The position numbers and the translations under genes are program-made. The notes under the pieces are model-generated. The model was not told the DNA's origin. It worked only from the letters and a program-made list of their open reading frames with translations, and ran no database searches. A stretch of 64,000 nt of DNA from Chlorops oryzae (lineage: Eukaryota > Arthropoda > Insecta > Diptera > Chloropidae): assembly GCA_020466095.1 (NCBI GenBank), contig CM035806.1, forward strand, positions 90,700,511 through 90,764,510. Direction: 5' to 3'. Below, piece by piece: positions 51,615 to 52,389 of this stretch (the stretch's first letter is position 1; each line of letters begins with the position of its first letter).

Positions 51615-52389
51615 AAAGAATACCGCAGCCTTCCTAACCATGTAAATAAAGCTAATATTAAAAACTTCCAAAAAAACAAGTCGAAAAACAGATATCTTGA
51701 CATTCCTTGTTTAGATCACAGCAGAGTCAAATTATCCAACGCTCATAATCACGACTACATACACGCGAATTTCATAAAAAATTTTTACAATAAGAAGGCA
51801 TATATTGCGACGCAAGGTCCACTCAGAAACACCCTAAATGATTTTTGGTCGATGGTCTGGGAGCAAAACTGCGTTAACATTGTCATGCTTACAAATGTCA
51901 TAGAAAACGGACAAGAAAAATGTCACCAATATTGGGGCAAGAAATTAAATGACATAATTACAACAAAAAATTTCGTTGCTAAAACGTTGGACAGAATCGT
52001 TAACAAAAGTAGTGTGCAATCAAAAATTGAATTAAATAACATAAATGAGAAAGAATCAAGGGTCATATGGCATTGGCAATTTACATGCTGGCCAGATAAG
52101 AGCACACCAAACCCTTATGCCTTACTTCATTTTTGGAAAAAAAATTAAAAGTCAACAGAAAAGCTCTGAAAACGAAAACAAACATGAAAGAATCATATTG
52201 CACTGCAGTGCCGGCGTTGGCCGAACTGGCACAATCATTGCACTAGACATAGCAATCGACTCTTTAGCGGCAGGGCAGAAATGCAAAATCCCAAACATTG
52301 TAAAGAAAATTCGCGCACAACGAGCGCATGCAGTTAACTGTTTTCAGCAGTACAAATTTTTGTACAATGCATCTCAAATCCATAAATGA
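51615..52389 (+). CDS. Protein tyrosine phosphatase domain fused to Pol C-terminus
   Basis: A classical PTP catalytic domain of about 255 residues, in frame after the integrase tail and a ~45-residue linker. Motifs in order: 'KSKNRYLDI' (phosphotyrosine loop), 'DHSRVKL', 'DYIHANFI', 'KAYIATQGPL', 'DFWSMVWEQNCVNIVMLT', 'KCHQYWG', WPD loop 'HWQFTCWPDKSTPN', signature HCSAGVGRTG at 52201-52230 with nucleophile Cys and Arg, and the Q-loop region 'KIRAQRAHAVNCFQQYKFLY'. All catalytic elements are present, so the fold should hydrolyse phosphotyrosine if expressed. One frame change lies in an A8 run (52137-52144) between the WPD loop and the signature. Whether it is cleaved from integrase is unknown. 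Host or viral origin is not established. Confidence 0.93.

What the first reader, a model, noticed from the sequence alone, without database searches (positions are those of the whole stretch)
51615..52389. Classical tyrosine phosphatase fused to the integrase end of a retroelement Pol
Seen: the Pol frame of element B passes the integrase GPY module and, without a stop, encodes the full ordered set of classical PTP motifs (KNRY, DYIHANFI, YIATQGPL, DFWSMVWEQ, WPD, HCSAGVGRTG, Q-loop). Established: these motifs define catalytically active PTPs; some insect viruses carry PTP genes. Inference: the element delivers a phosphatase with its replication proteins, perhaps to alter host cell signalling or integrase/particle phosphorylation. 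I know of no description of a PTP fused to a gypsy-type Pol.
Basis: partly seen in the sequence, partly recalled or inferred. Interest (0 to 1): 0.96.

Follow-up and report, generated by a model that had tools for sequence, protein, structure and literature searches.

The report
Retrovirus-like element carries fused tyrosine phosphatase

Summary
A classical protein tyrosine phosphatase (PF00102) follows the integrase GPY module of element B. This copy is broken: the pol frame stops at 52146-52148, after the WPD loop, and HCSAGVGRTG lies in another frame, so 'without a stop' is wrong here. The fusion is no assembly accident. A diverged second element in the window (A) has a PTP at the same place. 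Two public proteins, P0089 and P0093, are further IN-PTP fusions. The window's own genome has at least 113 places matching P0093 from integrase end to PTP, 90 without a stop, 27 of these in open frames of 1,500 aa or more. PTP domains from 11 subfamilies plus P0093 form one clade (100/99) apart from 70 cellular domain rows. Within subfamilies dN/dS is about 0.27. The nucleophile Cys, Arg and nearly always the general-acid Asp are kept, but the first Q-loop Gln is replaced in 10 of 11 subfamilies, which predicts slow turnover or trapping. PTP-less sister elements occur in the same genome, so the domain is an accessory. Most likely it is a Pol-borne phosphatase carried with particles; delivery and activity are untested. 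My literature searches showed no published description.

The parts
43944..44915 (+). 5' LTR of element B (starts TGTTG, ends CAACA)
   Evidence: start, end read from the sequence next to the primer site; 95.6% identical to the 3' copy over the shared part
44920..44933 (+). primer binding site TTGGCGCAGCCGGT (complementary to a tRNA-Ser 3' end, recalled)
   Evidence: same site in element A
46032..47625 (+). gag region (several ORFs; zinc knuckles read from the sequence)
   Evidence: related gag piece in element A at 4104-4562; no Pfam match for 46032-47075
47586..48881 (+). aspartyl protease ORF
   Evidence: PF00077 E 1.5e-5
48868..50888 (+). reverse transcriptase, RNase H, integrase zinc finger and core start (broken between 49281 and 49398; stop at 50886-50888)
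   Evidence: 48868-49278 alone has no Pfam match; it aligns with element A's RT
50889..51614 (+). integrase core end and GPY module, in one open frame with the PTP start
51615..52145 (+). PTP domain, first part (KNRY to WPD), in the pol frame
   Evidence: PF00102 E 8.3e-47; PDB receptor PTPs E 3.2e-62
52045..52389 (+). PTP domain, second part (P-loop HCSAGVGRTG and Q-loop), in another frame in this copy
   Evidence: PF00102 E 3.8e-22; PDB E 2.8e-25
52639..53223 (-). X: antisense ORF, 194 codons behind a polypyrimidine-CAG acceptor; predicted donor near 53317-53318
   Evidence: antisense in 22 of 64 distinct loci; pN/pS 0.43-0.46 in the 12 between-subfamily matches without stops (10 places)
53422..54936 (+). 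env-like ORF, 504 aa
   Evidence: PF12259 Baculo_F E 2.6e-8; same strand downstream of PTP in 36 of 64 distinct loci
55289..56164 (+). C48/ULP1-type cysteine protease ORF, 291 aa
   Evidence: PF02902 E 7.8e-16; SENP7 E 2.9e-14
56806..56819 (+). polypurine tract
56820..57439 (+). 3' LTR of element B, cut short, apparently by the insertion of element C
2107..2612 (+). 5' LTR of element A (506 nt; 92.3% identical to its 3' LTR; 4-nt target duplication GTGC)
16399..17211 (+). element A integrase end (degraded); its last open piece (ORF 16780-17235) runs in frame into the PTP start and is cut by a mariner insertion
   Evidence: PTP start by alignment to B (E 6e-6); PF00102 did not match this piece by itself
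18446..19077 (+). element A PTP pieces after the mariner insertion (HCAAGIGRT kept)
   Evidence: PF00102 E 1.9e-9, 3.9e-8 and 3e-28 for three pieces
21019..21524 (+). 3' LTR of element A

Best explanation
This is a family of gypsy-type retroelements, many with an env-like gene, whose Pol polyprotein ends in a classical protein tyrosine phosphatase fused in frame behind the integrase, and it likely delivers that phosphatase with the particle to act on phosphotyrosine proteins of the cell or of the particle. Shown: the in-frame fusion, its many copies and subfamilies, one clade of PTPs, purifying selection, and conserved nucleophile, Arg and general acid. Predicted: a separately folding PTP on a flexible linker. 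Inferred: synthesis at Pol level, packaging with Pol, and action early after entry, either still tied to integrase or cut off by the element's protease. The loss of the first Q-loop Gln predicts slow release of phosphate, so the enzyme may act at low turnover. The copy at 51615-52389 is itself broken.
Against: No expression, particle or activity data. The window's two copies are broken. The Gln equivalent to PTP1B Q262 is replaced in 10 of 11 subfamilies and in P0093, and P-loop variants occur (second Gly is Asn or Lys in 6 of 47 rows, Asp is Gly in 2 of 47), so some members may be weak or inactive. Sister elements in the same genome end Pol just after the GPY module without a PTP in the next 0.8 kb (5 of 6 loci read, chosen for short Pol ORFs), so the domain is not essential. 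The 22 dN/dS pairs are not independent, and the 123 closer pairs (dS under 0.1) sum to dN/dS about 0.36. Of the loci counted, 20 were picked by me for long open frames.
Confidence: 0.6

Rival explanations
1. The PTP is kept as a phosphotyrosine-binding or structural module, a trap rather than a turning-over enzyme, as reported for baculovirus PTP (virion structural role) and proposed for some bracovirus PTPs.
For: First Q-loop Gln replaced in 10 of 11 subfamilies and P0093, kept in 37 of 38 cellular D1 rows (one gap) and in 20 of 32 cellular D2 rows, which as a class also lose the WPD acid. In PTP1B, mutation of that Gln is reported to lower kcat about 100-fold (passage of PMC10267100). Baculovirus PTP is a virion structural protein whose activity was not needed for the behaviour studied (abstract and passages of PMC3320614).
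Against: The nucleophile Cys, which bracovirus trap PTPs lose (passages of PMC3573978), is kept in 47 of 47 rows and the general acid in 45 of 47; a pure trap would not need them.
Confidence: 0.3
2. The PTP is an unselected passenger captured once and copied along with Pol.
For: It diverges faster than integrase: in several subfamilies IN is 79-83% and PTP 48-58% identical to B's; PTP-less sisters with open Pol frames exist.
Against: dN/dS about 0.27 within subfamilies, pN/pS 0.43 median between 11 subfamilies; none of 2,000 neutral simulations reached the A-B amino-acid identity of the PTP; catalytic residues near-invariant.
Confidence: 0.06
3. A host PTP gene fragment lies next to the element or was joined to it in the assembly.
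For: The window copy is frame-broken.
Against: Over 100 further places on several large and many small contigs, two public proteins from other contigs, LTR-bounded element A, one PTP clade.
Confidence: 0.01
4. The PTP is cut from Pol by the element protease and works as a free protein, unrelated to integrase.
For: Linker of low predicted confidence between the two folded parts; retroviral Pol parts are normally cut apart (recalled).
Against: No cleavage site was tested; the linker is poorly alike between B, P0089 and P0093.
Confidence: 0.35

Closest known systems
Errantivirus-type insect endogenous retroviruses (Metaviridae; gypsy, 17.6, 297, recalled)
   Same: LTRs, tRNA primer site, polypurine tract, gag, protease-RT-RNase H-integrase order, Baculo_F-type env
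   Different: Pol carries a C-terminal PTP; antisense ORF X and a C48 protease are added
Chromoviruses (Gypsy elements with a chromodomain behind integrase)
   Same: extra domain fused behind the integrase GPY module (recalled; cited in passages of PMC9289625)
   Different: enzyme of signalling instead of a chromatin reader
Orchid Ty3/Gypsy elements with an AlkB m6A demethylase (PMC9289625, abstract and passages)
   Same: captured cellular-type enzyme kept through several subfamilies
   Different: there the enzyme is a separate ORF apart from Gag-Pol; here it is fused to Pol
Bracovirus and ichnovirus PTPs
   Same: classical PTP fold, viral carriers in insects (PMC3573978 passages)
   Different: separate genes delivered as DNA circles; 26-32% identical to P0093 in the named polydnavirus matches among the ten best
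Baculovirus PTP (PMC3320614, abstract and passages)
   Same: captured host phosphatase carried in virions
   Different: separate gene in a DNA virus; there phosphatase activity was not needed for the effect
Ginger1 transposases with C-terminal Ulp1 or OTU domains (PMC2836005, passages)
   Same: gypsy-type integrase with an added C-terminal enzyme
   Different: DNA transposons, proteases not phosphatases

Membership tests
Classical protein tyrosine phosphatase (PF00102) | full-length domain match | tested here: met
   P0093 E 4.7e-75 over 1-233 of 234; window copy in two pieces
Classical protein tyrosine phosphatase (PF00102) | nucleophile Cys and Arg in HCx5R, general-acid Asp in WPD | tested here: met
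   Cys 47/47, Arg 46/47 (one gap), Asp 45/47 rows
Classical protein tyrosine phosphatase (PF00102) | Q-loop Gln (PTP1B Q262 equivalent) | tested here: not met
   Gln in 2 of 47 rows, one of 11 subfamilies; Gln in 37 of 38 cellular D1 rows, one gap. This lowers 'ordinary active PTP', not 'PTP-domain homologue'
Classical protein tyrosine phosphatase (PF00102) | phosphatase activity | not testable with these tools
   needs an assay
LTR retroelement, Ty3/gypsy type | LTR pair, target duplication, primer site, polypurine tract | tested here: met
   element A: 506-nt LTRs, GTGC duplication, primer site, purine tract; element B: LTR pair, primer site, purine tract, duplication not testable as its 3' end is lost
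LTR retroelement, Ty3/gypsy type | protease, RT, RNase H, integrase in that order with GPY module | tested here: met
   GPY module read from the sequence
Errantivirus (insect endogenous retrovirus) | env related to baculovirus F protein | tested here: met
   PF12259 E 2.6e-8, above its cut-off
Errantivirus (insect endogenous retrovirus) | place in an RT tree with named errantiviruses | not tested
   no named reference sequences were fetched
Polydnavirus PTP genes | phylogenetic grouping with bracovirus or ichnovirus PTPs | not tested
   only fold matches were seen; no polydnavirus sequences were in the trees

The most novel reading that the evidence does not exclude
Retroviruses are famous for capturing tyrosine kinases; this lineage captured the opposing enzyme once, welded it to integrase, and uses the pre-integration complex itself as a vehicle to erase phosphotyrosine marks in the newly entered cell. 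Together with a conserved antisense gene and a ULP1-type protease it would be a complex endogenous retrovirus whose accessory enzymes reverse two host protein modifications.
Probability: 0.35. Interest if true: 0.95.

Novelty: new variant of a known kind. Interest (0 to 1): 0.87.

Why it matters
A cellular signalling enzyme fixed at the end of a retroelement Pol, kept under selection through at least 11 subfamilies, is a new type of Pol add-on. It makes a concrete question testable: do retroelements control tyrosine phosphorylation of their own integrase or of the host cell? It also shows that endogenous retroviruses of this type can hold several accessory genes, one of them antisense.

Tried and rejected
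Viral contig scans with the PTP piece, C48, P0093, RT-IN, alignment A1, X and env (seven scans) and one genome-contig scan with P0093 found no relative; a phage tblastn with the PTP piece found none. NCBIfam gave nothing at E 0.001 for four proteins. X matched no Pfam family at E 0.01 and no PDB sequence at E 1. The poly-A run behind B's PTP is not seen behind A's PTP, so I do not read it as a trace of mRNA capture. The IN tree is weak: the IN rows with PTP plus P0088, which lacks it, group at 80/94, no branch is starred, and the rows for A and P0093 fill under half of the columns. The cellular source of the PTP is unresolved: next in the tree is a partial Lottia protein (90/82), but only one row set named as insect (a psyllid PTPRS-like protein) and no polydnavirus PTP were in the set. 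A search of the genome for its own PTP genes did not complete. In the viral fold search all 50 matches with E up to 0.001 were listed; none bears the name of a retroelement, five have no name. Dating by LTRs of intact copies was not possible; instead copies within five subfamilies are 93.6-99.8% identical over 1,500 nt or more. Literature: ten searches, of which some were aimed at a phosphatase in a retroelement; the listings, some of them cut at 20 rows, showed none. The library lacks most subscription journals and bioRxiv preprints. PMC12440569 (abstract) and PMC8905726, PMC5704228, PMC12192612, PMC12992720 (passages) were read without a precedent.

Full report
1. What is at the place. In element B the pol frame passes the integrase GPY module and enters a classical PTP domain. 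ORF 50889-52148 matches PF00102 at E 8.3e-47 (profile 1-157 of 234) and ORF 52045-52389 matches positions 160-231 at E 3.8e-22. By sequence the best solved structures are receptor-type PTPs. The two pieces lie in different frames: pol stops at 52146-52148, between the WPD loop and the P-loop. Pol has further breaks at 50886-50888 and between 49281 and 49398.

2. The element around it. B has an LTR pair (43944-44915 and, cut short apparently by element C, 56820-57439; 95.6% identical over the shared part), a primer site and a polypurine tract. Order: gag, protease, RT, RNase H, integrase, PTP, antisense ORF X, env (Baculo_F), C48/ULP1-type protease.

3. A second copy in the window. Element A (2107-21524) is bounded by 506-nt LTRs, 92.3% identical, with a 4-nt duplication GTGC. 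Its pol is 69% identical to B's over 2.5 kb. Its last integrase piece runs in frame into a PTP start (ORF 16780-17235; seen by alignment to B at E 6e-6, not by Pfam), a mariner element interrupts it, and the PTP goes on to 19077 with HCAAGIGRT. The A-B amino-acid identity of the PTP exceeds all 2,000 neutral simulations.

4. Fusions elsewhere. A search with the IN-PTP ORF found P0093 (362 aa: integrase end, linker, complete PTP, E 4.7e-75) and P0089 (360 aa: integrase and the first PTP motifs, E 1.9e-11) on ENA contigs of 1.3 and 1.5 kb without an organism name. The own-genome matches to P0093 that were scored are only 41-47% identical, so it is not one of those copies.

5. The whole genome. 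The window lies in a 442-Mb assembly. The B PTP piece gave 152 matches in the 150 scored of 510 candidates, down to 47% identity, not all of them listed. P0093 gave 113 matches, all 113 scored of 1425 candidates, and every one spans integrase end and PTP; 90 have no stop, 36 of these lie in open frames of 1,000 aa or more and 27 in 1,500 or more, eight of exactly 1,618 aa. These counts are lower bounds. Of 80 fetched loci (30 best of each of two searches, and 20 picked by me for long frames), 64 hold a complete open PTP domain, and 58 of these 64 have the integrase module in the same open frame. After removal of exact overlaps among the 80, 64 distinct loci remain: integrase same strand upstream in 61, env same strand downstream in 36, X antisense downstream in 22, C48 in 10; most of these loci reach only about 1.5 kb beyond the match, the picked ones less. 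Copies within five subfamilies are 93.6-99.8% identical, which suggests recent activity.

6. One origin and selection. At 80% aa the open domains fall into 11 subfamilies. In a tree of 90 rows, 20 retroelement PTPs (19 from the 11 subfamilies, and P0093) form one clade (100/99) against 70 cellular domain rows; earlier trees with B's N piece (100/98 with P0093) and with B's and A's C pieces (98/99 with P0093) agree. Within subfamilies dN/dS is below 1 in 22 of 22 pairs with dS 0.1-1, median 0.27; 123 closer pairs sum to about 0.36; between subfamilies pN/pS has a median of 0.43 (0.25-0.61) over 55 pairs. For A-B, with synonymous sites saturated, pN/pS is 0.20 from RNase H to the integrase core, 0.25 in the later integrase and 0.36-0.47 in the PTP pieces. 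So the PTP is constrained but changes faster than integrase; in several subfamilies IN is 79-83% and PTP 48-58% identical to B's.

7. Catalytic state. Over 47 rows (46 distinct genomic domains and P0093) the nucleophile Cys is kept in 47, Arg in 46 (one gap), the general acid in 45, the pTyr-loop Lys in 47. The first Q-loop Gln is Asn 28, Ser 5, Thr 5, Pro 3, Gly 3, Val 1, Gln 2; 37 of 38 cellular D1 rows keep it, with one gap, and 20 of 32 D2 rows. In PTP1B mutation of this Gln is reported to lower kcat about 100-fold, as it is believed to place the water for the second step (PMC10267100, passages). The PTPs are thus predicted to form the phosphoenzyme but to release phosphate slowly.

9. Elements without it. 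Among the 150 best integrase matches of 4325 candidates several Pol ORFs are only about 1,300-1,370 aa. I read 0.8 kb behind six of them: in five (two of which look alike, and again two), Pol ends 13-21 residues after the HKNL motif that closes the module, with no PTP found; in two of these a C48 protease follows; the sixth has a PTP. The PTP is an optional accessory.

10. How it most likely works. Inferred: as the tail of Pol the PTP would be made at Pol level, enter the particle and arrive with integrase. It would then act on phosphotyrosine proteins, still tied to integrase or cut free. The trap or structural reading is a strong rival, with baculovirus PTP as a precedent for a virion role without activity (PMC3320614, abstract and passages). 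Expression, packaging, activity and target are untested.

11. Novelty. My literature searches (listed under Tried and rejected) showed no PTP in a retroelement. Domain capture by Gypsy elements is known (PMC9289625), so I rate this a new variant of a known kind, with high interest.

Noticed in passing
52639-53223 (-), predicted first exon from 53319 upward: Antisense ORF X between PTP and env, behind a polypyrimidine-AG acceptor; antisense in 22 of 22 distinct loci that hold it, 44-54% aa between subfamilies, pN/pS 0.43-0.46 in the 12 between-subfamily matches without stops (10 places), 0.42-0.52 in those with stops or cut short, 0.47-0.93 for open copies of B's own subfamily. No known family. 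A conserved antisense gene in an endogenous retrovirus of this type deserves its own study.
   Followed up: partly
55289-56164 and 63245-64000: Two different gypsy-type elements (B and C) each carry a C48/ULP1-type cysteine protease ORF, only 26% identical to each other.
   Followed up: partly
57440: Element C appears to have inserted into B's 3' LTR; it seems to run to the window end.
   Followed up: partly
17212 to about 18448: A mariner element (ORF 17279-18277, minus strand; family name recalled) sits inside element A's PTP.
   Followed up: partly
28678-33160, 33220-33741, 38637-39317: Tandem arrays; the first has a unit of about 490 nt, with a related stretch in inverse orientation at 25268-25863.
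   Followed up: no
6399-9121 (-): Jockey-like LINE ORFs (endonuclease and RT, and a zinc-knuckle ORF), inside element A (family name recalled).
   Followed up: no
L041: A copy in which the open PTP frame runs into the env start without the usual PTP end.
   Followed up: no
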